A model generated the notes under the pieces. The model ran no database searches. It was not told where the DNA came from and saw only the letters and a list, made by a program, of their open reading frames with translations. A program made the position numbers and the translations under genes. A DNA stretch of 64,000 nt from Thioalkalivibrio sp. ALJT. Its GTDB lineage: Bacteria > Pseudomonadota > Gammaproteobacteria > Ectothiorhodospirales > Ectothiorhodospiraceae. The stretch is taken from assembly GCF_000381825.1 (NCBI RefSeq), contig NZ_KB907121.1, positions 206,001 through 270,000 on the forward strand, in the 5' to 3' direction. Numbering within the stretch: position 1 is the first letter of the stretch; the number at the start of each line of letters is the position of its first letter. This document shows, one piece after another, positions 39,931-54,919 of the stretch.

Positions 39931-41141
39931 CAGGTCCTCCGGGCCGCGCCACGCAGCCATCCGCGGATGCCACCCGGACGGCTGTCCGGGTTCTCATCCA
40001 GCCGCCGGATCAATGTTCGGATGGCGGCCACCAGACTGTCCCGGGGGGCCATTTCAAACAGGCTCTTGCCCAGATTGACCGCACGCATGCGCTGCAGACC
40101 ATTCCCGGGAAGCGCCGCCACCAGGGGCGCACCAATACGTTCGGCAACCGTGTCGGGATCAGGGGCAAGCCGCGGCTGAGCGCGGTCGACCACCACGCGC
40201 AGCGAGCGGATCTGCGTCCCGGCCGTACGCATCTGCTCCAGCCGCTTCACGTTCTGGCGGAAAGAGGGCACGCTCTGATCGACCAGCTGCAGCACCTCAT
40301 CGGCATTGTTCAGCATCACATGCAGGAAGGCGCCCTGCGGGAGCCCGCCCAGATTCACGATCACATGCGTGTAATGGCGTTTGAGGGTACCCAGGAGGAG
40401 ATAGAGCTCGGCGGTGGAGACCTCGTCTTCACCGTCCCCGTCATCCGGGATCGACAGCACCTGAACCCCGGAACGGTCGGCGGGCAACGCGCTGTCCAGC
40501 AACGTCTGGTCGAGGCGCCGGAGATTGCGCATGGCGTCAAAGAAGGTGAACGACGACTCCAGCCCCAACAGCGCCAGGCAATCGCCGGAGGGTATACCCA
40601 GATCCAGGAGCAGCACCCGCGAGGACGGCTTCTCGTGTTTCAGGCCAATCGCCAGATGGGATGCAATAAAGGCGTTGGAGAGCTCCGGACGCGCGTTCAT
40701 CACCGCCCACACCACGCCGCGGTCGTCGCGGGCAGCATGCTGCACCGGCACGCGGTCGAGCGCCCGGCGCACCAGGGCGCGCACCTCGCTGGAACGCGTT
40801 CCCACCGCAAGGAAGTCGCGCGCCCCGGCCCGCATGGCGGCCAGGAGTGCATCGCGGGCATTACCATCGCCCACCGCAATCACCGTCAGCATCGGACGCG
40901 CGGCCGTGACCCCTTCGATCAAGGAGGAGGCGCGATTCAGGTCATCCGCCGCCACCCCCACGAACATCACCCGGGCATCTCCGAGGTCCAGTAACCCCAG
41001 CACCTCGTCCAGCTGATCGGATTCGGCCGGAACCACGGCACCAAGGTCACCGAGACTCATCTTCAGCCATTCCAGTTCGCGACCCGCCATCAGGCTGGTC
41101 ACAAACCGCGAAGGGGCATCCAGTCGTGGGTCTTCCGTCAT
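39930..41141 (-). CDS. tadZ: Tad pilus localisation protein TadZ (CpaE-like ParA family)
   Basis: The 403-aa protein has an atypical receiver-like N-terminal domain (about 20-130, VMFVGVAADDLNRASSLIEG) followed by a ParA/MinD-like ATPase fold (VVWAVMNARPELSNAFIASH, LLDLGIPSGDCLALLGLES). The deviant Walker A (NARPELSN instead of GGVGKT) suggests weak or lost ATP hydrolysis, as in several TadZ proteins. TadZ places the Tad machine at the pole. It overlaps rcpA by four bases (ATGA). Confidence 0.85.
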   Translation of the reverse strand: MTEDPRLDAPSRFVTSLMAGRELEWLKMSLGDLGAVVPAESDQLDEVLGLLDLGDARVMFVGVAADDLNRASSLIEGVTAARPMLTVIAVGDGNARDALLAAMRAGARDFLAVGTRSSEVRALVRRALDRVPVQHAARDDRGVVWAVMNARPELSNAFIASHLAIGLKHEKPSSRVLLLDLGIPSGDCLALLGLESSFTFFDAMRNLRRLDQTLLDSALPADRSGVQVLSIPDDGDGEDEVSTAELYLLLGTLKRHYTHVIVNLGGLPQGAFLHVMLNNADEVLQLVDQSVPSFRQNVKRLEQMRTAGTQIRSLRVVVDRAQPRLAPDPDTVAERIGAPLVAALPGNGLQRMRAVNLGKSLFEMAPRDSLVAAIRTLIRRLDENPDSRPGGIRGWLRGAARRT

Positions 41142-42418
41142 CGCCGGGTGTCTCCGATGCTACGGGGGAAGGGCTCAAAGCTCCCGTCCTCCAGGAAGAA
41201 CTGCTCGGCGGCGGACGGCGAGTAGTCCCGATATTGTTCTCCCGGGAGGGCCGGCAACGCGGCGTCACGCGACATCGGCTGGACCAGATGCGGTGTCACG
41301 ATCATCAGCAGCTCACGGTCGCCCTCTTCCAGCATGGAATTGCGGAAGAAGGCCCCGAGCACCGGGATCTCGCCCAGCCCCGGCAGGCGGTTCACCTGCG
41401 AGGCCGTGCTGGAGCTCACCAGCCCGGAGATCACGAAGCTCTCCCCGTCGCCCAGAGAGACCGTGGTGTCCGTGCGTCGCACCCGGATACCCGGCACCGT
41501 GGTCCCCGCGACCTGAACGCCGGCAGACTCATCCAGCTCGCTGACTTCCGGGGCGACCTTGAGGACCACCTGGTTTTCGTTGATCACCGTCGGCGTCAGC
41601 GACACCCGAACCCCGAACTCCTTGAACTGGATATTCACCGAGTCCGAGCCCGTCGACGGCACCGGCACCGGGAACTCGCCCCCGGCGTGGAAGGTTGCGC
41701 TCTGGCCACTCAGCGCGACCAGGCTCGGCTCCGCCAGGGTGAAGGCGAAGTCGCTGGACTCCAGGGCATTGATCAGCGACAGGAAGCGATCGCCCCCGCC
41801 ACCGTAGAAGATATTGAAGCCGCTCTCCGAACCGGGGATGCCGGACGAGGCACCGGCGATCCCGCCGGGAACGCCGCGACCATCCACGACCCCCGGGGTA
41901 CCGAACAGGAAATTCGAAGACCCTCGACGCCCCAGGAAGGAAGTCCCCAGTTCCCTCAGCTTGGAACGACTGACCTCCACCAGGCGGATATCCGCCTGCA
42001 CCTGCATGGGCAGGTCCGCCACCAGGTCGCGGCTTTGCTCCTGTTCGTGAACCTCCAGCGCCTCGCGCGCCGAAACCGTCACCAGCGAGCGCTCCGCATC
42101 CGGATTGCAGGCGGTCCAGACATAGAGCGACGTCAGGCCGCCGCCGGTACCGGTCAACAGGACTTCGTTATCGTTGACGACTGCCACGTCGGCAATGCCG
42201 TCGTCGCCCACCGCGACGCGTTCGATCCGCGTGGGGAACTCGAGACGTTTCTGTGTGCCCTCATCCAGATGCGCCAGGCGCGGCATTACCTGATTCACGC
42301 GGTCACACCCGGCGTATGCCGGGGCCACAGCGGCTCCCACCAGCGCCGCGATCGCGGCCAGCGTCACCAGCCCCCCGGGGCCGCGCGCTCCGGCCAGCAC
42401 CCCTATCTGTTTCTGCAT
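41138..42418 (-). CDS. rcpA: Tad pilus outer-membrane secretin RcpA (CpaC)
   Basis: From ATG 42418 the protein is 426 aa. A signal peptide ends PAYAG, then an N-terminal domain has TRIERVAVGDDGIADVAVVN and a BON-like region. The secretin domain has VQADIRLVEVSRSKLRELG, SATFHAGGEFPVPVPS, KEFGVRVSLTPTVINENQV and VSSSTASQVNRLPGLGEIPV. It forms the outer-membrane pore for the pilus. It is ten bases downstream of rcpC. A longer open frame upstream overlaps rcpC and lacks family similarity. Confidence 0.93.
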   Translation of the reverse strand: MQKQIGVLAGARGPGGLVTLAAIAALVGAAVAPAYAGCDRVNQVMPRLAHLDEGTQKRLEFPTRIERVAVGDDGIADVAVVNDNEVLLTGTGGGLTSLYVWTACNPDAERSLVTVSAREALEVHEQEQSRDLVADLPMQVQADIRLVEVSRSKLRELGTSFLGRRGSSNFLFGTPGVVDGRGVPGGIAGASSGIPGSESGFNIFYGGGGDRFLSLINALESSDFAFTLAEPSLVALSGQSATFHAGGEFPVPVPSTGSDSVNIQFKEFGVRVSLTPTVINENQVVLKVAPEVSELDESAGVQVAGTTVPGIRVRRTDTTVSLGDGESFVISGLVSSSTASQVNRLPGLGEIPVLGAFFRNSMLEEGDRELLMIVTPHLVQPMSRDAALPALPGEQYRDYSPSAAEQFFLEDGSFEPFPRSIGDTRR

Positions 42419-42428
42419 CACTTTCCCC

Positions 42429-43442
42429 TCACTGGTCGGATCGTTCAATCTCTTCGACACTATCGCCCCGGTGCAGGAACACCGGCGGCGGCCGCGGCGC
42501 GTCCGGTGCCGCCACCTCTTCGCGGAGCGGGGCCGGCCGCAGGTCATCCAGCGACAGCAACCCGCGTCCTTCGGCCTCGTCATCCGCATCCCCTTCGGTG
42601 TCCGCGTCTTCGGGATCTCTCAGCACACCCAGGGTCAGCGGCTCCTGGCGTTCCCCCTCGTCGTGTTCGGCGAAGGCCTCGGGATCGAAGTCGGGACGGC
42701 GCTCCACTGCAGGGCGCGCGGCCAGACGCAGTGTACCGGCGTGATCCGCGAGCATCAGGCGGGTCGCCTCGGCGTCCGGAACGGCCAGTACCGCGGTGCT
42801 CGCCCCGCGGCGACGCGCCCCGTTGTCGTCTTCCTCGTCGCGATCGACCACGCCGTCGGCCGGCACCGCCAGGTCGCGGCCATAGGCCAGAACGCGGAGA
42901 TTGCGGTGGGCATATTGCGCGGATTCGTCGATTGCATCGCGACGCTCGCTCGGCAAATGCAGGAGGACATCGACTCGATCACCGGGCTGCAGGAAACCGC
43001 CGACGCCGGTTTCATCATTCACGCTGATCGCGACGGCGCGTTCCCCCGGGCCCAGGGTGCGCGTGAGCTGACTGGCGCGGGCGAAGCGCGCCGCGGTCAA
43101 CGGCTCGTGAGCCCGTACGCGGCTCTCCAGCATCCGCCCGACGACGGCCTCCGGATCGCCAAAGGCCTGGGGCGGTACCGCGCGCAGACGCTCCACGTGC
43201 AGATCTTCCGCCCGGATGATCTCGCCCGCGGCCAGATCGCGACTGGCAAAGACCACATCGACTCGGTCCTGATCGGCCGGGTCTGCGGCATCATCACGCG
43301 GCTCCGGTGCGACGCGTTCGCGGACCTCGACTTCCGTATCCGCCACGTCGGACGTACCGGACAGATGAATCCCCAGCGCGCCCAGCACCAGCGCCGCGAC
43401 AAAAAACACCGCGGCCAGCCCCATCAGCAATCGGCTGCTCAT
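42429..43442 (-). CDS. rcpC: Tad pilus assembly protein RcpC (CpaB, SAF domain)
   Basis: The 337-aa protein has an N-terminal span (LLMGLAAVFFVAALVLGALG), then an SAF domain, VVFASRDLAAGEIIRAEDLH and VGRMLESRVRAHEPLTAARF. The RcpC/CpaB core follows with VSVNDETGVGGFLQPGDRVD-type residues. The C-terminal tail is acidic. SAF domains bind peptidoglycan or carbohydrate. It is the first gene of the leftward operon, with AAAAGGAGAAGAATTA before ATG 43442, and shares the promoter region with the flp pilin. Confidence 0.92.
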   Translation of the reverse strand: MSSRLLMGLAAVFFVAALVLGALGIHLSGTSDVADTEVEVRERVAPEPRDDAADPADQDRVDVVFASRDLAAGEIIRAEDLHVERLRAVPPQAFGDPEAVVGRMLESRVRAHEPLTAARFARASQLTRTLGPGERAVAISVNDETGVGGFLQPGDRVDVLLHLPSERRDAIDESAQYAHRNLRVLAYGRDLAVPADGVVDRDEEDDNGARRRGASTAVLAVPDAEATRLMLADHAGTLRLAARPAVERRPDFDPEAFAEHDEGERQEPLTLGVLRDPEDADTEGDADDEAEGRGLLSLDDLRPAPLREEVAAPDAPRPPPVFLHRGDSVEEIERSDQ

Positions 43443-43744
43443 TAATTCTTCTCCTTTTGCCTGATCCCGGCGTCATGCCCCATGCGCGCCCCCTTGCCGG
43501 GTCATCATAATACCGGGTACCCCGATCGCGCATGAGGCTGATACCATCACGAATGGCTACCACGATGGTTTCCCCGCCCAGCATGCAGCAATACCTCTTG
43601 CGGACTAGTCGTTATTTAAGGATCCCCTTATGCACACCCGTCATTTTAGACTAAATTGGGTGATTATTGACGCACGTTGACCTTTCGACTCGCGATGGCA
43701 CAGAATAACCCACTAACGGAACACGGGAAACCCGGGAGCACATT
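43443..43744. promoter_or_regulatory. 302-base divergent promoter region between rcpC operon and flp pilin
   Basis: This region separates the leftward Tad operon from the rightward flp pilin. A TAAGG-ATCC-CCTTA inverted repeat lies at 43617-43630. A possible pilin promoter has TTGACC (43677-43682) and CAGAAT about 18 bases later. CACCC and GGGTG arms surround 43635-43667. No gene is visible here. Confidence 0.45.
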
Positions 43745-43921
43745 ATGAAGGACTGGATTCGGAATCTCTGGAACGACGAAGAAGGGGCCTCGGCCATCGA
43801 GTACGCACTGATCGCCGCACTCATCGCAGTGGCCATTGTCACTGTTGCGGGGCTAGTTGGCGATGACCTTGTAGAGGTTTTCGAAGACATCCGTGACGGC
43901 TTGGCCGGTGGCGGCGAATAG
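43745..43921 (+). CDS. flp: Flp-type pilin (major Tad pilus subunit)
   Basis: ATG 43745 is preceded by GGGAG. The protein is 58 aa. A short leader (MKDWIRNLWNDEEGASAIEY) contains the Flp processing motif G-A-S-A-I-E-Y, with cleavage after G and conserved E and Y. A hydrophobic helix (ALIAALIAVAIVTVAGLVG) and an acidic tail ending DGLAGGGE follow. It is the pilus subunit processed by TadV just downstream. The opposite strand of this stretch also carries an open frame, which is only its shadow. Confidence 0.94.
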   Translation: MKDWIRNLWNDEEGASAIEYALIAALIAVAIVTVAGLVGDDLVEVFEDIRDGLAGGGE

Positions 43922-43971
43922 AATGCGATGACCGGTCAGTTCTTCGTAAATCACAGACCGTTTAGCTGTCT

Positions 43972-44475
43972 TTGCTGACCACTACCGGCATTACACTGTG
44001 GTCCGCCGCTTGCGGCGTATTCGACTGGCGCAAACGGAGGATCCCGAATGTGCTGACCGCCCCCGCCATGCTGGCGGGGGTTTTTTATGTGCTGGCGTTC
44101 CAGGCCACGCTGCTGGGCCAGGGCCCCTGGGCCCAGGTGCTCGCCGGTACCGGCCTGGCGCTGGCGCTCGCCCTGCCGGGCTACCTGATGAGCAAGCTGG
44201 GCGGCGGCGACCTCAAGATGCTGCTGGCCATCGCCCTGCTGGGCGGCACGCCGGCGGTACTGGCCGCCGTCCTCGGTGCGGGGGGGCTGGCGCTGCTGTT
44301 ACTGGGCGCCACCCTGGTCGGACGCTCGGTCGCGGTGATGCATCACCCCCTCCCCGCCCCGATCCAGCGAACGGCCCGCGCGATCGGAAGCTTCGACCTG
44401 CAGCGTATCCCGCTGGGGAGCGGCTTCGCTGCCGGGCTGATCGTCTACACGCTGAGCCTGACCTGGCCGGCCTGA
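43972..44475 (+). CDS. tadV: prepilin peptidase TadV (CpaA, A24 family)
   Basis: The 167-aa membrane aspartyl peptidase has catalytic D18 in GVFDWRKRRIPNVL and D80 in SKLGGGDLKML, the two aspartates of the A24 family, with about five spans. It cleaves the leaders of Flp and of TadE/TadG-like pseudopilins. The start appears to be TTG 43972 (a stop codon lies three codons upstream in frame) and no clear Shine-Dalgarno is seen, so expression is probably low. A perfect intrinsic terminator is embedded at codons about 30-38 (44060-44086). Confidence 0.9.
   Translation: MLTTTGITLWSAACGVFDWRKRRIPNVLTAPAMLAGVFYVLAFQATLLGQGPWAQVLAGTGLALALALPGYLMSKLGGGDLKMLLAIALLGGTPAVLAAVLGAGGLALLLLGATLVGRSVAVMHHPLPAPIQRTARAIGSFDLQRIPLGSGFAAGLIVYTLSLTWPA
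44060..44086 (+). terminator. intrinsic terminator inside the tadV coding sequence
   Basis: CCCCCGCC (44060-44067) pairs with GGCGGGGG (44073-44080) around a five-base loop, followed at once by TTTTTT (44081-44086). It encodes the stretch TAPAMLAGVFY of TadV. It could end most flp transcripts and leave only readthrough for the peptidase. Confidence 0.75.
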
Positions 44476-44519: not shown

Positions 44520-45047
44520 TCACCCCGTGGTTTCCGGGCGGGGCGGAAACCAGTCCAGCGGCGAGGCCTCCGCAGGGCGCCCCGGGAGGGCATCCGGGTC
44601 CGTTAGGGGCAACCAGTCGGAGGCCTTTTGATCCACGTACAGAACACGCCCCTCCGCGCTACCGGCATTCCAGAGGGCCGCGAAGGCCTCGCGCGACTCG
44701 TGACGGTCGCCACGGGCGGGGTCGGCGAGGCGCACGGTCTCTGCGTCCATACCGCGCAGCACCACGTAGTGCCCCACCTCGCGCGACCCCGGCAGGTGCA
44801 GGATGCCGGGGCGACCAACCGCCTCCAGAGTCGCCACATCCAGTGCGTAACCATGCGCCCGCAGCCCGAAACCCTCGGCGCCGCGGCGCAGGCGCTCCAT
44901 ATCCACGGCCTTCCGGGTGCCCAGCTTACGCAGGACCCGGGCCTCGGTCATGGATTGCCCCAGAACCTCGCGCAGGAGCGTCGCCAGGGCGGCCGCGCCG
45001 CAGCTTCGCGGGTGCGTCTGTCGCACCACCCGCTCAGCGCCACTCAT
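44520..45047 (-). CDS. stand-alone C39-type (double-glycine) cysteine peptidase
   Basis: The 175-aa protein has the C39 bacteriocin-peptidase layout: Q10 and C16 in RQTHPRSCGAAALATLL, H93 in REVGHYVVLRGMD and D109 in VRLADPARG. C39 peptidases cut leaders after GG or GA, normally as the N-terminal domain of a peptide-exporting ABC transporter. Here the domain is alone, with no membrane span or signal, so it should be cytoplasmic. It closes a six-gene operon with an ABC exporter, overlaps the preceding gene by four bases (ATGA), and a double-glycine peptide is encoded divergently at 50292. Processing of that peptide is the simplest role (inference). An alternative is a FapD-like protease. Confidence 0.87.
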   Translation of the reverse strand: MSGAERVVRQTHPRSCGAAALATLLREVLGQSMTEARVLRKLGTRKAVDMERLRRGAEGFGLRAHGYALDVATLEAVGRPGILHLPGSREVGHYVVLRGMDAETVRLADPARGDRHESREAFAALWNAGSAEGRVLYVDQKASDWLPLTDPDALPGRPAEASPLDWFPPRPETTG

Positions 45048-45526
45048 GCCAGCAACCGGCCGTACACCATCGCGATCACGGCGATGATCGCCCAGACCAG
45101 CAACATCAGGCTCACGGCCATGCGCGCACTCAGGCCGCTGGTCTGACGGAACAACACATACACAAGGCCGAAGGTCGCGATCACCGCGAGTACACCCATC
45201 ACCGGAATCGGGCCCAGGATCAGGGGCAGCATGATAATGATACTGGCCACATGGAACTTCAGCGGCGACTCAATCCGGCCCAGCACAAGGGCCAGAACCA
45301 GCCATACACTCACGGCCAGAAGCAGCGAGAACAACAGCGCCGCCTGCAGGCCCGACAGGAATTCGGCTACAACGTCCCGTTCACCGGCCAGCAGGCCGAG
45401 CAGCGTGTTCAGCACAACGATCAGGAGCAGGAGCCCCAGCCCCTGCAACCATTCCGCTACCCCGCCTTCCAGCTCCTCCAGGACCTGTAGCGGACGACGC
45501 ACGAGTTTGCTGTAGAGCGATGCCAT
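45044..45526 (-). CDS. 160-aa multi-span membrane protein between ABC permease and C39 peptidase
   Basis: From ATG 45526 the protein has a short cytoplasmic N-terminus (MASLYSKLVRRPLQVLEELE) and then five hydrophobic segments (about 28-46, 58-78, 88-105, 112-135, 140-158). The pattern is like the Yip1/YIP1 membrane family, but the match is weak. It is translationally coupled to the C39 peptidase (ATGA overlap) and follows the MacB-like gene by 23 bases. Candidate roles by position are an exporter accessory, a membrane anchor for the peptidase, or self-protection against the exported peptide. None is proven. Confidence 0.6.
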   Translation of the reverse strand: MASLYSKLVRRPLQVLEELEGGVAEWLQGLGLLLLIVVLNTLLGLLAGERDVVAEFLSGLQAALLFSLLLAVSVWLVLALVLGRIESPLKFHVASIIIMLPLILGPIPVMGVLAVIATFGLVYVLFRQTSGLSARMAVSLMLLVWAIIAVIAMVYGRLLA

Positions 45527-45549
45527 GTTCTTCCCTTTTCCTGATTCGA

Positions 45550-46782
45550 TTAGTCGTAGCGCAATGCTTCCATCGGCGAGAGATTCGACGCCTTCTGTGC
45601 GGGGTAGTAACCGAAAAAACCACCGATGGAGGCCGAGAACAGCACGACCGCAAGCACAATCATCAGGTCGAGCTCGGGCCTCCACGGCAGGAACTGCGCC
45701 ACCACCAGAAGCGACAGGCCGGCCAGGGCCAGCCCGATCAGGCCCCCGACCATGGTTAGCAGCGCCGCCTCACCGAGGAACTGCATGCGGATACGCCCGG
45801 CCGTCGCGCCCACGGCGCGCCGAATGCCGATCTCGCTGACCCGTTCGGTCACCGATGCCAGCATTACGTTCATTACGCCGATCCCGCCCACAATCAGGCT
45901 GACCCCGGCGATGCTGACCAGAATCCAGGTCATTGCATCCACGATACGCCCCGCAAGGCTCGCGATCTCGCCGAAATCAGTCACGCTGTGCGCCGCACCA
46001 TTCTGGACGATATTCCGTTTGGCCGACATCAGGTACAGCTCGATCGAGCGCGTTACCGCTTCCTTGTGCTCACGGTCGGCCTCGACCAGGATGTGCTGCA
46101 CATGCTGGACGCCGGCAATCTGACGCTGGAGGAAGGTGACCGGGACCAGGATCTCCGTATCCTGGCCATCCCCCAGGGCGGCATCCTCGCGTTCCGCCAG
46201 CACCCCGACGACTTCGACCGAACGCCCCTGGAAATACACCACCCGCCCCAGGGCCGGCCGGTTGCCGAACAGGCGTTGCGCGAGCTCGGCCCCCAGCACG
46301 CCCACCGAGGCCCCGCGGTTCACATCGCTCTCGGTGAGACCACGGCCGAGCGCAATCTCCATTTCGCGCATGCCAAAGTAGCCGGGCGTCGTGCCCACCA
46401 TCGAGCCCACGGCCCGCCGTTCGCCGCGCCGCAGCTCGCCGCGGGCCTGGAAGACGGGCGCCGCATGCCGGACATGGGCGATCCCCGAGGCAATCTCCTG
46501 CGCATCCCGCACATGCAGGCTTTCCACAATACGGGGGTCAAAGAATGAGGTCGGGTCCTCGGGATTTCCGGGGGTCACCACCAGCAAATCGGAACCCAGC
46601 ACCTGCACCTGGTTTTCGATGTAGGTCTTGGCACCCAGGCCGATGCCAATCAGGGTCACCACCGACCAGATCCCGACTGCGATACCCAGGATGGTCAGCG
46701 CAGACCGCGCCTTGTGCTCGCGCAGCAGCGCGAACGCATCCCCGAGAACCGTCAGAAACTCGGACAGCCGGCCCCGGATCAT
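45550..46782 (-). CDS. MacB-type ABC transporter permease
   Basis: The 410-aa protein has the MacB permease design: one N-terminal span, a periplasmic MacB_PCD domain of about 220 residues (GSMVGTTPGYFGMREMEIAL, GRVVYFQGRSVEVVGVLAE), then the FtsX domain with three spans. The conserved GIGVMNVMLASVTERVSEIG and IRRAVGATAGRIRMQFLGEA loops are present. Unlike E. coli MacB, the ATPase is a separate protein (next gene upstream, four-base overlap). Such permeases act as mechanotransmitters that push periplasmic peptides, toxins or lipids through a TolC-type channel. Confidence 0.92.
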   Translation of the reverse strand: MIRGRLSEFLTVLGDAFALLREHKARSALTILGIAVGIWSVVTLIGIGLGAKTYIENQVQVLGSDLLVVTPGNPEDPTSFFDPRIVESLHVRDAQEIASGIAHVRHAAPVFQARGELRRGERRAVGSMVGTTPGYFGMREMEIALGRGLTESDVNRGASVGVLGAELAQRLFGNRPALGRVVYFQGRSVEVVGVLAEREDAALGDGQDTEILVPVTFLQRQIAGVQHVQHILVEADREHKEAVTRSIELYLMSAKRNIVQNGAAHSVTDFGEIASLAGRIVDAMTWILVSIAGVSLIVGGIGVMNVMLASVTERVSEIGIRRAVGATAGRIRMQFLGEAALLTMVGGLIGLALAGLSLLVVAQFLPWRPELDLMIVLAVVLFSASIGGFFGYYPAQKASNLSPMEALRYD

Positions 46783-47486
46783 CGGACAGCTTCCGGCACG
46801 GCCGGGGTCCGGTGCAGCCCACCGTCTTCCAGGCGATAACAGGAGGCTGCGCGCGCAGCCAGGTCCATGTCATGGGTCACGAGAATGACGGCAAGATCGG
46901 GGTTCTCACGCTGCAACGCTTCGATGATCTGCATCACGGAGGCCCCTGTTTCCGGGTCGAGGTTGCCGGTGGGCTCGTCCAGCAGAAGAATCCGCGGGCG
47001 CACCGCCAGCGCCCGGGCGATGGCCACACGTTGCTGCTGCCCGCCCGAGAGCTGGCGCGGGCGATGCTCGGCATGGGACTCCAGCCCGACCTGGGTAAGG
47101 GCATGGAGCGCACGCTCACGCTTTTCCCCGGGCGTCAGGTCCTCGCGATAATCCAGCGGCATCGCGACGTTACGCAATGCGCTCATCCGATCCACCAGAT
47201 GGAAACGCTGGAACACAAACCCCAATACGCTGCCACGGAAGGCAGACAATGCCTCGTCGGAGAGTGACGAGATCTCGGTGCCCTCGACGCGAACCACCCC
47301 CCGATCCGGACGCTCCAGACAACCGAGCACATGCAGCAACGTGGATTTTCCGGAGCCGGACGGGCCTACAATCGAGACGTAATCCCCCTGCAGCACGGAG
47401 AGGCTGGCCCCACGCAGGGGCTCGACCCGGTGGCCGCCCACCGAGAACCCCTTCTCCACCTTGTCCAGCGACAAGACCTCGGACAC
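46779..47486 (-). CDS. ABC transporter ATP-binding protein (MacB/LolD-type)
   Basis: From GTG 47486 the protein is 235 aa. It has Walker [16 protein letters not shown], a Q-loop [10 protein letters not shown], signature [15 protein letters not shown], Walker [13 protein letters not shown] and the H-switch VTHDMD. It is the nucleotide-binding partner of the MacB-like permease downstream. The start was placed at GTG because it follows the MacA-like stop by seven bases with GAAGG before it. The frame also opens 26 codons further up, inside the MacA-like gene. Confidence 0.92.
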
Positions 47487-47493
47487 GGGCCCT

Positions 47494-48669
47494 TCACTCG
47501 TCCAGCAGGACCCGGGCACTGGCCAGGTCCGGATCGGCGCCCTCAAGGGCTGCGTATTCATCATCCTGGAATTCGATTCGCACGCCTGCGGGCTCTACCC
47601 GCCCGGAATCGCCAACCACCCAGATGACCGTAAGGTCGTCCGCCCTGAAGGCCGCCAGCTTCTCGGCGTGTTCTTCCAGCGTCTTCGACGGCGGCTGATA
47701 CACGAGCGCCTCGACCGGCACGGCCAGGCGCTCACTCTGATCGCCGACGTCGATCCGCGCCCGCGCGCTCATGCCAGGGAAAAAGACGCCGTTGTCATTC
47801 GCCGCGCGCGCGATCACCCGATACAACCGCACCCCATCACTGTTGCGTGCGCCACGTTCGACCTCCTCCACGACGGCCTCGTGCTCGCTGCCGGGCCGCG
47901 CCTCGATCGCGAAGCGTACGGTCTGCCCGGATTGCACCTGCCCCACATCCGCCTCATGCACATCCAGCATGACTCGAATCTCGTCGAGGGAGGGCGCAAT
48001 CTCAGCCAGCGGCGTCGTGGTCGTGGACGAGACGGGCTGGCCCGGCTCTGCATGCACGGACAACAGCACGCCCTTGAACGGGCTCTTCACGCGGGTGTTT
48101 TCGAGGTCCTCGCTCGCTCGCTGCAAATGCACTTGAGCGCGTTCGACTTCGGCCTCGGCCCGCTCCTGCGCCGCCCGGGCATCCAGGTATTCAGCACGGG
48201 CCTGTTCGAATTCTTCGCGCGGGATCAGATCCTGGTCCGCCAGCCGGCGCACCCGCTCCTTGCGGTTGTGCGCCTGCTCGTAACGGCTGTTCGCCGTGGC
48301 CTGCTCGGCCTTGGCGCTCCAGATCGCAACCTCTGCCTCGCGGTGCTCGTGCCGGATCTGGCGGTCATCCAGCTCGACCAGCACGTCGCCTTCATCGACC
48401 GCACCGCGCCCTTCGGCGACCGTCACCACCACGCCCGGAACCTGGGCAAACAAGGCCCGCTGGCCGCTGGCGCGTAACTCCCCGTCGGCCCGCACTTCGG
48501 CCCGCACGACGCGTTCTTCGATCGGCACCGCGACCGCACCCTCCGGCAGCCGCTCCCCGCTCGGGAGGAGCATGAGGAGCACGAGCAACACGACCACGAC
48601 GGCGGCCGCCAACCCGAGCCGCACACGCACACCCGGCTGGCTACCAAGACCCTGCAAGATACGGCGCAT
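47494..48669 (-). CDS. MacA/HlyD-type periplasmic adaptor
   Basis: The protein is about 391 aa with an N-terminal span (VRLGLAAAVVVVLLVLLMLL), a lipoyl half (VVTVAEGRGAVDEGDVLVEL), a long coiled-coil hairpin (about 95-185: AEAEVERAQVHLQRASEDLE), the second lipoyl half (VKSPFKGVLLSVHAEPGQPV) and beta-barrel domains. It bridges the MacB-like permease and the TolC-like channel. ATG 48669 is preceded directly by a GTG. It starts ten bases after the TolC-like stop. Confidence 0.9.
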   Translation of the reverse strand: MRRILQGLGSQPGVRVRLGLAAAVVVVLLVLLMLLPSGERLPEGAVAVPIEERVVRAEVRADGELRASGQRALFAQVPGVVVTVAEGRGAVDEGDVLVELDDRQIRHEHREAEVAIWSAKAEQATANSRYEQAHNRKERVRRLADQDLIPREEFEQARAEYLDARAAQERAEAEVERAQVHLQRASEDLENTRVKSPFKGVLLSVHAEPGQPVSSTTTTPLAEIAPSLDEIRVMLDVHEADVGQVQSGQTVRFAIEARPGSEHEAVVEEVERGARNSDGVRLYRVIARAANDNGVFFPGMSARARIDVGDQSERLAVPVEALVYQPPSKTLEEHAEKLAAFRADDLTVIWVVGDSGRVEPAGVRIEFQDDEYAALEGADPDLASARVLLDE

Positions 48670-48681
48670 CACTAAAAGCCC

Positions 48682-50070
48682 CTAGCGCAACGTGTCGGTG
48701 GGAATCGACCCCAGCGCCCAGTACAGGCGCGCCAGGGCCTTCTGACGATCGAAGCGAGCCCCTTCCAGCCGGGCCTGAGCCTCCGCCACATCCACCTGTG
48801 CCTGCGAGAGGTCGGAGAAACTGCGTACACCCTCGCGGTAGCCGCCCCGGGCATTGCGCAGGTCCTCCTCCGAGGCGGCCAGCGCACGTTGTGCCAACTG
48901 GATCCGCTCTTCCGCTTCTGCCAGGTCGTTTTCCGCCTCCCGGGCCTGCGTAACCACTTCGTTATAGCGGTGCTCGCGCGCCGCAGCTGCCGACATTTGC
49001 TGGGCGCGCGCTTCAGCGACCCGCGACCCGCGGTCGCCGCCATCGAAGATATCCCAGCGCAGCTCGACACCGACCGTGTAATTGGGCGCAGTACCGCCTT
49101 CGGCAAACCGGTCTACCCGGTAGTTCGCGCCGGCCTGCAGGGTCGGCCGGAAACTCCGCCGATGGCGTTCGAGCTCCGCACGCCGTGCCTCCACGGCCTC
49201 GATCTGCGCGACCACACTGGGATGCTCCTCAGCCCAGTCCTTGTCCTCAAGCGCCTGCCTCCAGTCACCCGGGGCGCGAATGCGGCTGCGGGTATCCACC
49301 TCGAATTGCGCATTGTGGGGATGCACTCCCATCGCCCGCAGCAGACGCAACCGATGACGCTCGACTGTGTTGCGGGTTTCGGTGACATCCACTTCGGCTC
49401 GCGCCACATCCGCATCGGCCCGCGCCACGTCACCTCCCGTCACGCGACCGGCCCGATGCAGCCTCCGCGCCAGTTCCGCCGATTCTTCCTGCCGCGCCAG
49501 CGCTTCCTCCTGCACCGCGAGCAAAGCCTGGGCGTGCAACAGGTCAAAATACCCTTCTGCAACTTCCAGCACGGTATCCGCTTCGGCGACATTGGTCCGG
49601 GCCTGAGCCGCGGCACGATCCCCTATGGCGGCATCCCGCTGACTCCTGCGCTGACCAAAGTCCCACAGGATGTATTCGGCAGTAACGTGAGCGCTGTAAC
49701 GGGTAAACCCGGACAGGTCGCGAACGGGCTCATCGACCGTTACCGGATCGGTATCCGGGAAGATCTCGCTGAAATCCAGCTCCGCCCGCCCCGCCGCCGG
49801 CGATGCGCTGTTGAGCGTCAGGTGATCCACGCCAGCCCCGACGCTCACGCGCGGCCGGAAAGCGGCATCAGCGCGATCCACTCCGGCCTGCGCGACATCG
49901 CGTTCGGCGCGGCTGCGATGGACTTCAGGATTATTTTCCAGGGCCGTTTGAATCGCGTGTTCGAGTGTCAGGGTCTCGGCCGCTGCGGAGTGAACCCCGA
50001 CCGCCATGAGACTGATGCCCAAGCCGACCAGGGCCCTGCGGGTGGCTTTACTCAACCGTTGCTGAAACAA
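48682..50070 (-). CDS. TolC-family outer-membrane channel of the peptide-export operon
   Basis: The 462-aa protein has a signal peptide (RRALVGLGISLMAVGVHSAAA) and the repeated OEP domains of TolC-family proteins, LEHAIQTALENNPEVHRSRA and LRNARGGYREGVRSFSDLSQ, with long helical stretches. The start is TTG 50070 with AGGAGG seven bases before, the first gene of the leftward export operon. It diverges from the double-glycine peptide at 50292 across a 221-base region with inverted repeats. Confidence 0.9.
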   Translation of the reverse strand: MFQQRLSKATRRALVGLGISLMAVGVHSAAAETLTLEHAIQTALENNPEVHRSRAERDVAQAGVDRADAAFRPRVSVGAGVDHLTLNSASPAAGRAELDFSEIFPDTDPVTVDEPVRDLSGFTRYSAHVTAEYILWDFGQRRSQRDAAIGDRAAAQARTNVAEADTVLEVAEGYFDLLHAQALLAVQEEALARQEESAELARRLHRAGRVTGGDVARADADVARAEVDVTETRNTVERHRLRLLRAMGVHPHNAQFEVDTRSRIRAPGDWRQALEDKDWAEEHPSVVAQIEAVEARRAELERHRRSFRPTLQAGANYRVDRFAEGGTAPNYTVGVELRWDIFDGGDRGSRVAEARAQQMSAAAAREHRYNEVVTQAREAENDLAEAEERIQLAQRALAASEEDLRNARGGYREGVRSFSDLSQAQVDVAEAQARLEGARFDRQKALARLYWALGSIPTDTLR

Positions 50071-50291
50071 GGCGAGGCCTCCTGAAGTATGAGAAGTGAT
50101 TATGCAAAAAGACAGCCTACAACCGAAGCAGGTATCCCTACTAGGGCTTTCGGGGGGCCTGAGGCAATACTTTATACCCTGTAGGAATTCTCTACCCCTT
50201 TGACGTTGACGCTGACCTTGAGCTCGTTATTCACTAGCACACGTCGGCACTAGTCGACCCAACACGTGAAGAACCATCAAAGGAGAACACC
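50071..50291. promoter_or_regulatory. 221-base divergent promoter region with TAGGG/CCCTA repeats
   Basis: This lies between the export operon (leftward) and the GG-peptide gene (rightward). CCCTACTAGGG (50136-50146) is a palindrome with a one-base centre. GTAG and CTAC arms lie at 50181-50184 and 50192-50195, and tandem TTGACG-like units lie near 50200-50215. A related palindrome, GGTAGGCCCTACC, lies upstream of the adhesin operon (60078-60090). These could be binding sites for one shared regulator. Confidence 0.5.
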
Positions 50292-50474
50292 ATGATCCGT
50301 GAAATGAACAGCGTTGAAATGGAAACTGTCGTCGGCGGCGCCGACGTCACCGCCAACCTGGGCGCCCTCGGCAGCATCACCATCGACGCCGCCATGCCGG
50401 CCCTGGCCGCCCTGGCCGATGCCGTGAACAGCCTGCTGATCGGCCTGGCCGGCGTTCTGGGCGGCGTTCTCTAA
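50292..50474 (+). CDS. 60-aa peptide with double-glycine leader (exported peptide, bacteriocin-like)
   Basis: ATG 50292 is preceded by AAAGGAGA. The 60-aa product starts with MIREMNSVEMETVVGG, which fits double-glycine leaders (acidic/hydrophobic spacing E9-M10, V13-V14, G15-G16). Cleavage after G16 would release a 44-aa peptide starting ADVTANLG. It contains about 12 Ala, few charges and no Cys, and ends VNSLLIGLAGVLGGVL. The exporter operon with a C39 peptidase lies directly divergent, and a strong terminator follows at 50587. It could be a bacteriocin, a signalling peptide or a biofilm matrix subunit. The sequence does not decide which. Confidence 0.82.
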   Translation: MIREMNSVEMETVVGGADVTANLGALGSITIDAAMPALAALADAVNSLLIGLAGVLGGVL

Positions 50475-50586
50475 GGAACGCGACGCTCTACTCTCTTCGT
50501 AGTATTGACGAGAGAGACATAAAGCTGCCCGCAAGCACCCCCCTGTCTTGCAGGCAGTGGTTGCCCTCCATCGAGAGCAACCTTCA

Positions 50587-50620
50587 GAGGAAGGAGACAT
50601 CGTCTCCTTCCTCTTTTTTT
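50587..50620 (+). terminator. strong intrinsic terminator after the GG-peptide gene
   Basis: GAGGAAGGAGAC (50587-50598) pairs perfectly with GTCTCCTTCCTC (50602-50613) around a three-base loop, followed by seven T. It lies 113 bases after the peptide stop, so the peptide mRNA carries a long 3' tail. Confidence 0.93.
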
Positions 50621-51181: not shown

Positions 51182-51213
51182 AAAAAAGGCGACATGCCAG
51201 CGGCATGTCGCCT
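51182..51213 (-). terminator. strong intrinsic terminator after the 35-aa peptide gene
   Basis: GGCGACATGCC (51188-51198) pairs with GGCATGTCGCC (51202-51212) around a three-base loop. Read leftward it is followed by a run of six T (the A-run at 51182-51187). It lies about 25 bases after the stop of the leftward 35-aa gene. Confidence 0.92.
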
Positions 51214-51236
51214 TGCACTTCGGCTTGCCTCGAGCC

Positions 51237-51344
51237 TTACAGCAGGCCGCCGAGCAGGCCGCCGCCCAGCAGGTTGTTCACCAGACCCAGGACCGGGTCG
51301 AGCAGGCCAAAGACAGTTCCAAGCAGTCCACCAAGAAGATCCAT
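51237..51344 (-). CDS. 35-aa hydrophobic Gly/Leu-rich peptide, C-terminus like the GG-peptide
   Basis: ATG 51344 opens a 36-codon frame with GAGG about ten bases before, and a strong terminator follows the stop. The product begins MDLLGGLLGTVFGLL and ends VNNLLGGGLLGGLL. It has a single charged pair region (two Asp) and otherwise Leu, Gly and Val, enough for one membrane helix. Its last residues align with the VNSLLIGLAGVLGGVL end of the 60-aa peptide at 50292. It has no double-glycine leader of normal length. It follows the type I secretion operon on the same strand after 135 bases that contain a palindromic operator-like site. Function unknown. Confidence 0.6.
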   Translation of the reverse strand: MDLLGGLLGTVFGLLDPVLGLVNNLLGGGLLGGLL

Positions 51345-51479: not shown

Positions 51480-52736
51480 TCAGCGCTCGGTCAACGCATC
51501 GCTGGCACGATTCAGCGGCGTCAGGAGGTATTCCAGAATCGTGCGCTCCCCCGTTTTGATATCGACGCGGGCGATCATGCCCGTTGCAATCTCGACCACC
51601 CGGCCGGTCGCCGTCTCGAGCGACGCCCCTTCGAGCTCCAGGGTCACGAGATAGTAGACCTCTTCCGGGTTGACCTCGTCCCGAACCGTGTCCGGCGAGA
51701 TATCGGTCACGATGCCCTGGAGCTTGCCGTAGCGGGAGGCATCATAAGCAGTGATCTCCACCTGCGCCGGCTGTCCCGGGTGCACATGCGCAATGTCTCG
51801 AGGCGAGATCCGCGCCTCCACCACAAGCTCCTCGTCCTGGGGCACAATCTCCATGATCTTGCCGTTGGGTGAGACCACCCCTCCGAGCGTCTGCAATTCG
51901 ATACTTTGCACCCGCCCCTGAACCGGAGAGCGCAGGACCAAACGCTCCAGGGCATCCTGATGCCCCCTCAGGGCAGACCGCAGAGCCGCTACTTCAGTAC
52001 GGGTTTCGGCAAGCTCCTCGCGAGCCCGGACCAGGAAGCCGTCTTCCAGCTCATCCTGCTCCTGCTGCAACTCGGCCATGGTGCGGCGCTGACGCAGCAG
52101 CTCCACGCGCGAGGCGGCGCCGGCCTCCACCAGTTCCGCCGTAATCGCGCGCTCCTGCTCGACCAGGTCGAACGCGGCCTGTATGTTCTTCCGGCTACGT
52201 TCGAATGCCTCCCGGCGGCTGCGAAACAACGCGCGCTCGGGCGCCGTCACCTGCGGGGTCGCGTCCAGCTCGGACGGAAAGGTGATCGCTTCGGCACCCG
52301 CGACCTCGGCCTCCAGCCGGCTTTTACGGGCGAGCGCCCCCAGGTAGCGCGCCTCCACCTCTTCTTTTTCCGCCCTTGTCTGGACGGGGTCGAGAACCGC
52401 CAGGCGCTGTCCCGCCGTAACCGAATCCCCGCGCCGCACATACAGTTCGCGCAGGATGCCGCCTTCCATCGACTGGATCACCTGCGACCCCGAACGCGGT
52501 ACCACCGTCCCTTGTCCGGTGGAGACCTGACTGACCTCGGCGAAAAAGGCCCAGATCACGAACGCCGCCAGGAGCAAGGTCACCAACAGCACCAGGCGCC
52601 CGGCCGCCGGCGCGCGCCCGGCTTCACCAGGGAAATGGCCAAACGGACCGCGCTCGGGACCAGGCTGGGTAGCAGGGCCGACCCACCAGCGGCGCAGCGC
52701 CTCCCGGAAACGGTCCACCTGCCCGTCCGTGTTCAT
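51480..52736 (-). CDS. type I secretion periplasmic adaptor (HlyD/LapC family)
   Basis: The 418-aa membrane fusion protein has a cytoplasmic N-terminus, one span (about 44-66, LVLLVTLLLAAFVIWAFFAE), lipoyl motif VIQSMEGGILRELYVRRGDS, a coiled coil (EAFERSRKNIQAAFDLVEQE to about 270) and the C-terminal lipoyl/beta-barrel part. RSPVQGRVQSIELQTLGGVV is the HlyD-family motif. It connects the ABC exporter to the TolC-like channel. It overlaps the ABC gene by four bases. Confidence 0.92.
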   Translation of the reverse strand: MNTDGQVDRFREALRRWWVGPATQPGPERGPFGHFPGEAGRAPAAGRLVLLVTLLLAAFVIWAFFAEVSQVSTGQGTVVPRSGSQVIQSMEGGILRELYVRRGDSVTAGQRLAVLDPVQTRAEKEEVEARYLGALARKSRLEAEVAGAEAITFPSELDATPQVTAPERALFRSRREAFERSRKNIQAAFDLVEQERAITAELVEAGAASRVELLRQRRTMAELQQEQDELEDGFLVRAREELAETRTEVAALRSALRGHQDALERLVLRSPVQGRVQSIELQTLGGVVSPNGKIMEIVPQDEELVVEARISPRDIAHVHPGQPAQVEITAYDASRYGKLQGIVTDISPDTVRDEVNPEEVYYLVTLELEGASLETATGRVVEIATGMIARVDIKTGERTILEYLLTPLNRASDALTER

Positions 52737-54919
52737 CCCTGGGCCCCGCCGCGGGCATCGCCTTCGTTCAGCTGCGCCAGCTTCGCAAGAACACGGTCCC
52801 GGGTGTCATCCATGACGACTCGTCCCGCATCAATGACAATGACGCGATCCACCAGCTTGAGGACGTTGCGCCGATGGCTGGCGACGATCAGGGTGTTGCC
52901 CGCGGGCAGGCGCGCGAGATCGGCGATCACGGCGGCCTCCGCACGATCGTCCATTCCGGTGGTGGGCTCATCCAGCAGCAGAACGGTCGGGTGGCGCAGG
53001 AGGACACGTGCCAGCAATACCGCCTGGCGCTGCCCGCCGGACAGCCCCGTTCCACCTTCATTCACCATGTAGTCCAGGCCATCCGGGACCCGCTTCAGGA
53101 GATCAAGGGCCCCGATCCGCTTCAGCACGCGCAGGATCTCGTCATCGCTGGCCCCGGGTGCGCCCAGTGTCAGGTTCTCGCGCAAGGATCCATGAAAAAG
53201 CCGGCCACTCTGAGCGACCAGGCCGACGTCCCGACGCACATCGGCCGGATCCAGATGCCCCAGATGAATGCCATCCAGGAGCACTTCCCCCTCGGCAGCG
53301 TCCAGCAGGCCGGCAAGCCCCTGCAGCAGGGTGGATTTGCCTGCGCCACTGCGGCCGATAACGGCGATGCGCTCACCCGGCTTGATTTCCATGCGGCCGA
53401 TGGTGAGCGCCGGGCGCGGATCGTCGCGCGAATAGATGAGCTTCGCCCGCTCGATCTGGTAATGGCCGCTCAGCTGGGCCCGATGGACCCGGCGCTCGCC
53501 ATCGGGGTAATCCAGCGGCCGCTGCATGACGCCATCGAGCCCCTGCAGTGCAACCCGCGCCTGCTGCCAGCGGTTGAGCACCTGGTTGATCTGCGCCATG
53601 GGCACCAGCATGCGCGAGGCCAGGATCGAGGCCGCTACCAGCGCCCCGGTCGTCAGATCGCCGGTCATGACCATCGGCGCCCCGAACAGGATCACGACGG
53701 CGAAGGAGCCGGTCTGCACCGTCTGTCCCCAGGTGGTCAGGGAATTGGTCAGCAGGCGCTGACGCAGATTCACTTCGGTGGTGACAGCGTTGTAGTGGTT
53801 CCACTGGTTCTGGAAACGGGGCTCCGCCTGCAGCAGTTTCAGATCATCGCCCCCCTGGATCGACTCGACCAGCATGCCATTGCGCCGCGAAGCCTCGCGC
53901 ATGGCCTCGTTCGCCAGACGGCGCAGACGCCCCTGCAACAGCAGCCCGGGCAGGACGAGCACCACCAGCGCCAGGGCCGGCACCAGGACCAGGCTACCGG
54001 CGATGTACCAGAACACGACCAGAAACAGAATGAAGAACGGCATGTCCGCCAACACGGACACCGTCGTCGAGGTCATGAAATCACGCACACGCTCCAGCTC
54101 CCGCAACTGCGCGATGAAACTTCCGGTCGAGCGCGGGCGCTCCGAGTTGCGGATGCGGACAGCGTGCCCGAACACGCGATCGGAGATACGTATGTCGGCA
54201 TCCTTCCCCAGCACATCAATGATGCGCAGCCGCGCGACGCGCATGACGAACTCGAACAGAAGCGCCAGCACGACCCCGGTGAACAATACATAGAGGGTCG
54301 GGAACGACTCCGCAGGGATGACCCGGTCATACACCTGCATCGCGAAGACGAGACCGGCCAGAGCCAGCACGTTCGCCAGCAGCGAAGCCAGGAAAACGGA
54401 ACCGTACGGCCGCAGATCTTGAAAGACGATGCCACGAAACCAGTGCTGACGATAAGGCTGGATGTATTCATCAATGCGCGGGTCCGCCTGATTGCGCAGC
54501 GGCCGTACCACGAAGACGCGCTGCACCCTCGCCTGAAGATCGGCCGTCACCAGGGCGCTGCGTACATCGCCCTCACCGGACCAGGCCACCTGCCACGCAT
54601 CACCGTCATGGGTTACGCCATCGACGACCCCGACATGACCGCCTTCCAGCTCCACCAGCAACGGCAACTGCCAGGCATCAAGCCGGTCCAGCACGCGCCG
54701 GCCCGGCGATTCCGCCAGTTCCAGGCCAAGCTTCCGCGCAAGCGCGGTCAACTGATCGGCATCGGGCTCGGCATCGCCCACCCAGGCGACCAGCGACCTG
54801 GCATGTTCCTCGGAAAACGGGCACTCGTAGTAACGCGCGACACGTAACAGGGCCTCCAGCCAGTCTTCCAGCCCCTGCGCTGTGGTGGACGCCCCGGCGC
54901 CGGGCGTCCCCGCGCTCAT
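52733..54919 (-). CDS. type I secretion ABC exporter, LapB/LssB type
   Basis: The 728-aa protein has an N-terminal C39-like domain (about 15-150) in which the catalytic cysteine region reads LLRVARYYECPFSEEH, so it is a non-proteolytic substrate-docking domain. Six membrane spans follow (FLASLLANVLALAGLVFAMQ onwards), then the ATPase with Walker A GRSGAGKS (522-529), signature LSGGQ (626-630) and Walker B LLLDEPTTGMD. It is the motor that exports large repeat adhesins of the LapA/BapA kind. Neighbours are the TolC-like and HlyD-like partners, with four-base overlaps on both sides. Confidence 0.94.
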   Translation of the reverse strand: MSAGTPGAGASTTAQGLEDWLEALLRVARYYECPFSEEHARSLVAWVGDAEPDADQLTALARKLGLELAESPGRRVLDRLDAWQLPLLVELEGGHVGVVDGVTHDGDAWQVAWSGEGDVRSALVTADLQARVQRVFVVRPLRNQADPRIDEYIQPYRQHWFRGIVFQDLRPYGSVFLASLLANVLALAGLVFAMQVYDRVIPAESFPTLYVLFTGVVLALLFEFVMRVARLRIIDVLGKDADIRISDRVFGHAVRIRNSERPRSTGSFIAQLRELERVRDFMTSTTVSVLADMPFFILFLVVFWYIAGSLVLVPALALVVLVLPGLLLQGRLRRLANEAMREASRRNGMLVESIQGGDDLKLLQAEPRFQNQWNHYNAVTTEVNLRQRLLTNSLTTWGQTVQTGSFAVVILFGAPMVMTGDLTTGALVAASILASRMLVPMAQINQVLNRWQQARVALQGLDGVMQRPLDYPDGERRVHRAQLSGHYQIERAKLIYSRDDPRPALTIGRMEIKPGERIAVIGRSGAGKSTLLQGLAGLLDAAEGEVLLDGIHLGHLDPADVRRDVGLVAQSGRLFHGSLRENLTLGAPGASDDEILRVLKRIGALDLLKRVPDGLDYMVNEGGTGLSGGQRQAVLLARVLLRHPTVLLLDEPTTGMDDRAEAAVIADLARLPAGNTLIVASHRRNVLKLVDRVIVIDAGRVVMDDTRDRVLAKLAQLNEGDARGGAQG

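What the first reader, a model, noticed from the sequence alone, without database searches (positions are those of the whole stretch)
44520..50620. Split double-glycine peptide export system: stand-alone C39 peptidase, MacAB/TolC-like exporter and divergent 60-aa substrate
Seen: a 60-aa gene with leader MIREMNSVEMETVVGG, strong Shine-Dalgarno and terminator; divergent to it a six-gene operon (TolC-like, MacA-like, ATPase, MacB-like permease, small membrane protein, C39 peptidase with C16/H93/D109). Known: C39 peptidases cut such leaders but are normally fused to a PCAT-type ABC exporter. Here protease, ATPase and permease are separate proteins and the permease is of the MacB type, which takes substrates from the periplasm. 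Inference: a Gram-negative peptide maturation and export pathway of unusual design. How a cytosol-cleaved peptide reaches a MacB-type permease is not explained.
Basis: partly seen in the sequence, partly recalled or inferred. Interest (0 to 1): 0.87.

Follow-up and report, generated by a model that had tools for sequence, protein, structure and literature searches.

The report
Peptide exporter with separate leader protease
A salt- and alkali-loving sulfur bacterium carries a gene set that seems to make two small water-repelling peptides, trim one of them inside the cell with a free-standing protease, and push both out through a MacAB/TolC-type pump, a combination of known parts that I did not find described.

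Summary
The 60-aa double-glycine (GG) leader gene (here PepA) and the tight operon TolC–MacA-like–ATPase–MacB-like–small membrane protein–C39 are real. The permease and PepA occur in the same 3 of 47 genomes of the family (genus Thioalkalivibrio).

Three additions. (1) A second, leaderless 35-aa hydrophobic peptide (PepB, 51237-51344, minus strand) lies convergent to PepA and occurs in the same 3 of 47 genomes. (2) A related exporter operon in another gammaproteobacterial family has PepB-type leaderless peptides but no detected PepA or C39. The exporter core therefore goes with leaderless peptides, and the GG leader goes with C39. (3) The three C39 proteins of this operon lack a signal-like N-terminus. 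All 43 other unfused C39 loci sampled in Gammaproteobacteria have one; a gonococcal one does not. Cleavage should be cytosolic.

Best reading: C39 trims PepA in the cytosol, and the MacB-type pump expels mature PepA and PepB from the membrane or periplasmic side. This resembles the MacB-type transporters of leaderless Gram-positive bacteriocins (EntDD14, AS-48), with TolC added. Cleavage, export, activity and immunity are inferred; nothing was tested in cells. New variant of a known kind.

The parts
50292..50474 (+). PepA: 60-aa precursor, 16-aa GG leader + 44-aa hydrophobic core starting ADVTANLG (calculated monoisotopic mass of the core 4072.25)
51237..51344 (-).
50586..50614 (+). intrinsic terminator after PepA (13-bp stem, T run)
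   Evidence: z -5.8
51186..51214 (-). intrinsic terminator after PepB (13-bp stem, T run)
   Evidence: z -2.8
48682..50070 (-). TolC-like outer membrane factor (462 aa, TTG start)
   Evidence: PF02321 1.2e-58
47494..48672 (-). MacA-like periplasmic adaptor (392 aa, GTG start)
46779..47486 (-). ABC ATPase, LolD/MacB/DarD type (235 aa from the GTG chosen here; the open frame allows 261)
45550..46782 (-). MacB-like permease without fused ATPase (410 aa)
45044..45526 (-). small membrane protein (160 aa from the ATG chosen here), mostly long predicted helices; function unknown, candidate assembly factor or immunity protein
   Evidence: model of low confidence; no family above cut-off, not Yip1
44520..45047 (-). 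stand-alone C39 peptidase (175 aa), Q10/C16/H93/D109, no signal-like N-terminus; ATGA overlap with the preceding gene

Best explanation
This is a Gram-negative export cassette for two small amphipathic hydrophobic peptides. PepA is made with a GG leader that keeps it inactive or soluble. The free C39 peptidase in the cytosol removes the leader after Gly16. PepB is made without a leader. Both mature peptides enter the inner membrane, and the MacB-type pump (MacB-like permease + ATPase + MacA-like adaptor + TolC-like channel, helped by the small membrane protein) takes them from the membrane or periplasmic side and expels them. Leader removal is thus uncoupled from transport, unlike in PCATs. 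The likeliest role is antagonism of neighbours (two-peptide-bacteriocin-like), with the pump also protecting the producer. Shown: genes, conservation, co-occurrence, catalytic residues, absence of a signal-like segment on C39. Inferred: cleavage, membrane entry, export of both peptides, antagonism, immunity.
For: PepA, PepB and the MacB-like permease occur in the same 3 of 47 family genomes. C39 relatives above 50% identity occur in the same 3 among the 37 of those genomes tested with C39, and in all three C39 closes the operon. The leader fits C39 recognition: hydrophobic residues at -4, -7 and -12 and GG at -2/-1 (rule seen in passages of PMC10885120). The 3 C39 proteins of this operon have no signal-like segment; all 43 other unfused loci examined in the sampled genomes have one. 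In G130 the same exporter order is kept with leaderless PepB-type peptides, and no C39 or PepA was found. In EntDD14 two leaderless peptides are exported partly by DdGHIJ (DdG plus adaptor, ATPase and MacB-type permease), which also gives resistance (PMC9865063, passages).
Against: No experiment. MacB is held to take substrates from the periplasm and to lack a sufficient trans-membrane channel (PMC5985334, passages), so the step across the inner membrane is unexplained. PepA and PepB are anionic (net -1 to -4), which I recall as unusual for bacteriocins. No immunity gene is recognised. In window and G013 a type I exporter lies next to PepB and could serve instead. The system is known from 3 species of one genus plus 2 genomes of one other genus, so co-occurrence counts few independent events. 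The second G130 peptide is PepB-like and not shown to be a PepA. In G253 the permease ortholog was not found; its contig ends in the operon after the ATPase.
Confidence: 0.52

Rival explanations
1. The MacB-type pump is chiefly a self-protection pump (as NisEFG, AS-48EFGH, YknWXYZ); the peptides leave the cytosol by another route, and the pump clears them from the membrane and periplasm.
For: DdGHIJ loss only partly reduces EntDD14 export and lowers resistance (PMC9865063, passages); YknWXYZ protects against the SDP toxin (PMC4887032, passages); MacB acts from the periplasm (PMC5985334, passages).
Against: The pump has its own TolC-like and MacA-like partners and the leader protease in one operon, which suggests a production role. 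I did not search systematically for another peptide exporter in these genomes.
Confidence: 0.25
2. The neighbouring LssB-type type I system (51480-54919) exports the trimmed PepA and/or PepB; the MacB operon does something else.
For: It lies beside PepB in window and G013 and is a typical T1SS transporter (TIGR03375, 786 bits, cut-off 693).
Against: No HlyD or LssB ortholog was found within the 19.5 kb of the G010 locus, where PepA, PepB, C39 and the MacB operon are all kept; none beside the G130 operon beyond cross-hits to its adaptor and ATPase. The rest of the G010 genome was not searched for it.
Confidence: 0.1
3. PepA and PepB are not antagonists but structural or surface-active peptides, or signals, secreted by the same cassette.
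For: Strongly hydrophobic, amphipathic, acidic sequences with Gly-Leu repeats; no recognised immunity gene; GG peptides serve biofilm in a cyanobacterium (PMC4997328, abstract in listing).
Against: The two-peptide layout and [GA]xxx[GA] repeats resemble two-peptide bacteriocins (resemblance recalled). No regulator or receptor gene was noticed beside the locus, but none was searched for.
Confidence: 0.3
4. PepB is not a substrate but a small membrane subunit or modulator of the pump (AcrZ-like), or a small hydrophobic toxin unrelated to the pump.
For: 35 aa, hydrophobic, leaderless, found with the pump in the three Thioalkalivibrio genomes and G130; AcrZ precedent (PMC4338810, passages).
Against: Own SD and terminator, opposite or separate from the pump genes in Thioalkalivibrio; G130 has three PepB-family genes, one about 490 kb from the exporter on the same contig.
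Confidence: 0.15
5. C39 acts on something other than PepA, or is inactive.
For: No direct test.
Against: All four catalytic residues are invariant over sequences only 51-78% identical; this C39 clade and PepA were found together or both missed in the genomes where both were looked for.
Confidence: 0.08

Closest known systems
EntDD14 DdGHIJ / enterocin AS-48EFGH transporters of leaderless and circular bacteriocins (Enterococcus)
   Same: Extra protein + MFP-like + ATPase + MacB-type permease handling small bacteriocins; EntDD14 is a two-peptide leaderless system (PMC9865063, passages)
   Different: Gram-positive, no TolC, PH-domain proteins DdEF; no C39 appears in the passages read; compared by type only, not by sequence
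YknWXYZ of Bacillus (SDP peptide efflux)
   Same: Four components: small membrane protein, MFP, separate ATPase, MacB-type permease; handles a 42-aa peptide toxin (PMC4887032, passages)
   Different: The small membrane protein here does not match Yip1, the family of YknW; TolC and C39 added
Class II microcins with PCAT exporters (CvaB/MchF)
   Same: GG-leader peptide, C39 catalytic residues, TolC (PMC10233263, passages)
   Different: Protease not fused; MacB-type permease instead of a PCAT exporter; second leaderless peptide
Neisseria nap island, Pseudomonas Fap, haemocin plasmid p250 (stand-alone C39 + GG peptides)
   Same: Stand-alone C39 with GG peptides in Gram-negatives (PMC11798529, passages); the gonococcal C39 frame in L067 also shows no signal-like segment
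   Different: Partner is a FapF-type or other beta-barrel outer-membrane protein rather than a MacB pump; the haemocin precursor starts with a signal-like segment before GG and its C39 frame has one too
Darobactin DarBCD
   Same: Ribosomal peptide cluster with ABC transporter subunits and a membrane fusion protein; the window ATPase hits DarD at 1.4e-54, below its cut-off
   Different: rSAM-modified; proteolysis by host enzymes; DarBCD not essential for production (PMC9055067, passages)
LitOPAI of Legionella
   Same: TolC-like, MFP, ATPase and MacB-type permease as four separate neighbouring genes (PMC11559062, passages)
   Different: Substrate unknown; the term C39 does not occur in the text

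Membership tests
Class II microcin / PCAT system | GG leader with conserved -12, -7, -4 positions | tested here: met
   rule from passages, (G010 has Ala at -4)
Class II microcin / PCAT system | C39 fused to an ABC exporter (PCAT) | tested here: not met
   C39 is a separate 175-aa protein
Class II microcin / PCAT system | antibacterial activity and immunity protein | not testable with these tools
   needs an assay; no immunity family match among the proteins scanned
MacAB-TolC type tripartite exporter | MacB periplasmic core + FtsX permease, MacA-like adaptor, TolC-like channel | tested here: met
MacAB-TolC type tripartite exporter | ATPase fused to the permease as in E. coli MacB | tested here: not met
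   separate genes
C39 peptidase | Gln, Cys, His, Asp catalytic residues | tested here: met
FapD-type stand-alone C39 | NCBIfam C39_FapD equivalog score | tested here: not met
   54 bits against cut-off 330
FapD-type stand-alone C39 | signal-like N-terminal segment, as in the 43 other unfused loci examined | tested here: not met
   (hydropathy test; FapD itself not examined)
YknWXYZ-type four-component transporter | small membrane protein of the Yip1 family | tested here: not met
   0 of 9 PF04893 matches in four genomes lies at the operon; hhalign probability 1.9% against a two-row Yip1 alignment
Leaderless two-peptide bacteriocin (EntDD14-like) | both peptides leaderless | tested here: not met
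   PepA has a GG leader; the two G130 peptides upstream of its operon are both leaderless
Leaderless two-peptide bacteriocin (EntDD14-like) | killing activity | not testable with these tools
   needs an assay

The most novel reading that the evidence does not exclude
A peptide secretion route in which GG-leader removal is done by a free cytosolic C39 and is uncoupled from transport, and a MacB-type pump exports a mixed pair of one trimmed and one leaderless hydrophobic peptide; that is, a MacB relative that accepts ribosomal peptides from the cytosolic side or inner leaflet, with the leader/protease pair as an add-on to an older leaderless-peptide exporter.
Probability: 0.33. Interest if true: 0.82.

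Novelty: new variant of a known kind. Interest (0 to 1): 0.6.

Why it matters
MacB-type pumps are thought to lift substrates from the periplasm, and C39 cleavage is described as concurrent with export in PCATs. This locus separates the two functions and offers a natural comparison: the same kind of pump with GG leader + C39 (Thioalkalivibrio) and with leaderless peptides only (G130). It makes two questions testable: what a GG leader is for, and how cytosol-made peptides reach MacB-type pumps. It also points to a small hydrophobic peptide family (PepB) that matched no Pfam-A or NCBIfam model above cut-off.

Tried and rejected
A scan of genome contigs with C39 alone found nothing; a scan with the MacB alignment found Thioalkalivibrio sp. 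ALJ24, which names G013, and one weak match not followed. Plasmids held no PepA match. AlphaFold models were too weak to use: small membrane protein pLDDT 65, no PDB match at E 0.001 or better; permease pLDDT 42. Rejected: small membrane protein = Yip1/YknW. Rejected: G130's 41-aa peptide = leaderless PepA; against the three PepA cores z was 1.2, 0.2 and 3.6, against the G130 PepB 8.5. Weak matches dropped: four PepA matches at E 0.003-0.009 in other genomes. One (G184) is another GG-leader peptide beside a HlyD-type adaptor, so an ordinary microcin-like gene by its look; the other three are not short peptide genes, or give no such frame. Two weak PepB matches in G125 and G354 lie in long frames. 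Phylum-wide (317 genomes) and class-wide (369) searches for the permease at 1e-90 gave only the window, and the window plus G130 (only the first 4-5 candidates per genome were scored). An IMG/VR scan gave three distant MacB relatives, not followed. The gonococcal C39 frame (L067) lacks one too by the same test, while the haemocin C39 has one. Literature: the pairing C39 + MacB-type exporter was not found in searches (open-access PMC only; papers seen as listings or passages, none whole).
Full report
What is there. On the minus strand of 50070-44520 lie six tightly packed genes: TolC-like (462 aa), MacA-like adaptor (392), ATPase (235), MacB-like permease (410), small membrane protein (160) and C39 peptidase (175) (starts of ATPase and membrane protein chosen by me). 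The ATPase/permease and membrane-protein/C39 junctions are 4-nt ATGA overlaps (read). Divergent to them is PepA (50292-50474, +): leader MIREMNSVEMETVVGG and a 44-residue core. The leader has hydrophobic residues at -4, -7 and -12 and GG at -2/-1, as the C39 enzyme LahT150 requires (passages of PMC10885120). Among 182 window start codons with an SD that give 40-120 aa, only PepA has this motif; 20 shuffles gave one hit in all. PepA ends in a strong terminator.

A missed part. A scan for short hydrophobic frames with an SD found, besides PepA and other frames that look like fragments of larger genes, PepB at 51237-51344 (-): 35 aa, leaderless, with its own terminator. It is convergent to PepA in the window, in G013 and in G010.

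Conservation and co-occurrence. Permease orthologs (E at or below 1e-95), PepA and PepB (E at or below 0.01) each occur in 3 of 47 genomes of the family, and they are the same three. C39 relatives above 50% identity occur in the same three among the 37 family genomes tested with C39; 10 of the 47 were not tested. Identities to the window (G013, G010): PepA 78, 67%; PepB 74, 83%; C39 78, 51%; permease 89, 63%; small membrane protein 74, 34%. dN/dS is 0.19, 0.59 and 0.27 for the three PepA pairs and 0.16-0.30 for PepB (short genes, rough values). The three are kin, so these are few independent events.

The natural comparison. In a class-wide sample of 369 genomes, one more genome, G130 of another family, has the same order, TolC-MFP-ATPase-permease-small membrane protein, at 40-64% identity and 21% for the last protein. 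It has no C39 in the 20 kb around, is not among the 45 genomes with a C39 match at 1e-12, and has no PepA match. Upstream of its operon lie two leaderless peptides of 39 and 41 aa. The 39-aa one is a PepB relative: z 9.4 against the window's PepB, 0 of 2000 shuffles as good; a profile from the three Thioalkalivibrio sequences alone finds it at E 6e-7 among the frames of three loci. The 41-aa one is a relative of that PepB (z 8.5), not demonstrably of PepA (z 1.2, 0.2, 3.6). Its congener G253 has both peptides with identical protein sequences and the operon up to the ATPase, where the contig ends; a permease ortholog was not found there (87% complete). G130 has a third PepB-like gene about 490 kb away. 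So in the two lineages known, the exporter goes with leaderless PepB-type peptides, and the GG leader goes with C39.

Where cleavage happens. Stand-alone C39 genes are common: 57 matches in 45 of 369 gammaproteobacterial genomes (window included), only 2 in frames over 500 aa (profile and threshold favour unfused relatives). Loci were returned for 30 of these 57 and for 22 of 22 matches; 48 are distinct: 2 fused, 46 not. Of the 46, all 43 outside this operon have a hydrophobic segment (12-residue mean of at least 1.6) in the open frame 25-75 residues before the catalytic Cys; the 3 of this operon do not: 0.49, 0.52 and, for G010, 1.42 in a stretch mostly before its start codon. This is a hydropathy test with a threshold I set. 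With a start chosen by SD, 5 of the others showed no segment; the count failed on a too narrow motif. Two named records checked last disagree with uniqueness: the haemocin C39 frame has a segment (2.48), the gonococcal one does not (1.11). The three of this operon form one clade (100/100) apart from fused and other unfused forms (long branch, deep placement weak). So this C39 should work in the cytosol, on a precursor that also lacks a Sec signal.

How it may work. [quoted passage not shown] Mature PepA and PepB are strongly hydrophobic and amphipathic (nine peptides: GRAVY 1.2-1.6; the maximum helical moment exceeds shuffles by 1.0-3.5 sd). They could insert into the inner membrane themselves after leader removal and be lifted out by the pump. 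This is inference. The nearest working parallel is EntDD14, a leaderless two-peptide bacteriocin whose MacB-type DdGHIJ carries up to 75% of export and gives resistance (PMC9865063, passages). The parallel with YknWXYZ fails on the Yip1 test.

Limits. No protein-level evidence. Structures could not be modelled well. G130 and G253 are unnamed. The acidic peptides are unusual for bacteriocins but may fit a haloalkaliphile (recalled). Role (antagonism, signal or surface) is open.

Noticed in passing
window 51480-54919 (-): HlyD-type adaptor and LssB-type type I secretion ABC transporter (TIGR03375 786 bits) beside PepB; kept in G013, not found at the G010 locus.
   Followed up: partly
window 41138-44475: Genes that look like a Tad pilus locus (Flp-type prepilin 43745-43921, prepilin peptidase 43972-44475, secretin-like frame 41138-42589; labels by eye and recalled) lie beside C39; prepilin-peptidase-like frames also lie next to C39 in L023 and L024.
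   Followed up: no
G092 (L031, L072, L073): One genome carries seven C39 genes related to the window's; the one examined for it (L031) has a signal-like segment; substrates unknown.
   Followed up: no
L089 7779-7886 (+): A third PepB-like 35-aa leaderless peptide in G130; no exporter relative in the 17 kb fetched beyond a weak adaptor-like match.
   Followed up: partly
L071 5405-5721 and L088 3859-4174: Two tandem PepB-family peptides upstream of the exporter; protein sequences identical in two genomes while the aligned DNA is 86-92% identical.
   Followed up: yes
L062 about 1501-1755: Another GG-leader peptide (MRELNVNEIKQVNGG...) beside a HlyD-type adaptor in G184, found by the PepA profile at E 0.003.
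   Followed up: partly
L066 3626-3928: Haemocin precursor shows a hydrophobic signal-like start followed by a GG motif, and its C39 frame has a signal-like segment too, suggesting periplasmic processing.
   Followed up: partly
L067 5842-6510: The gonococcal stand-alone C39 frame shows no clear signal-like segment by the same test.
   Followed up: no
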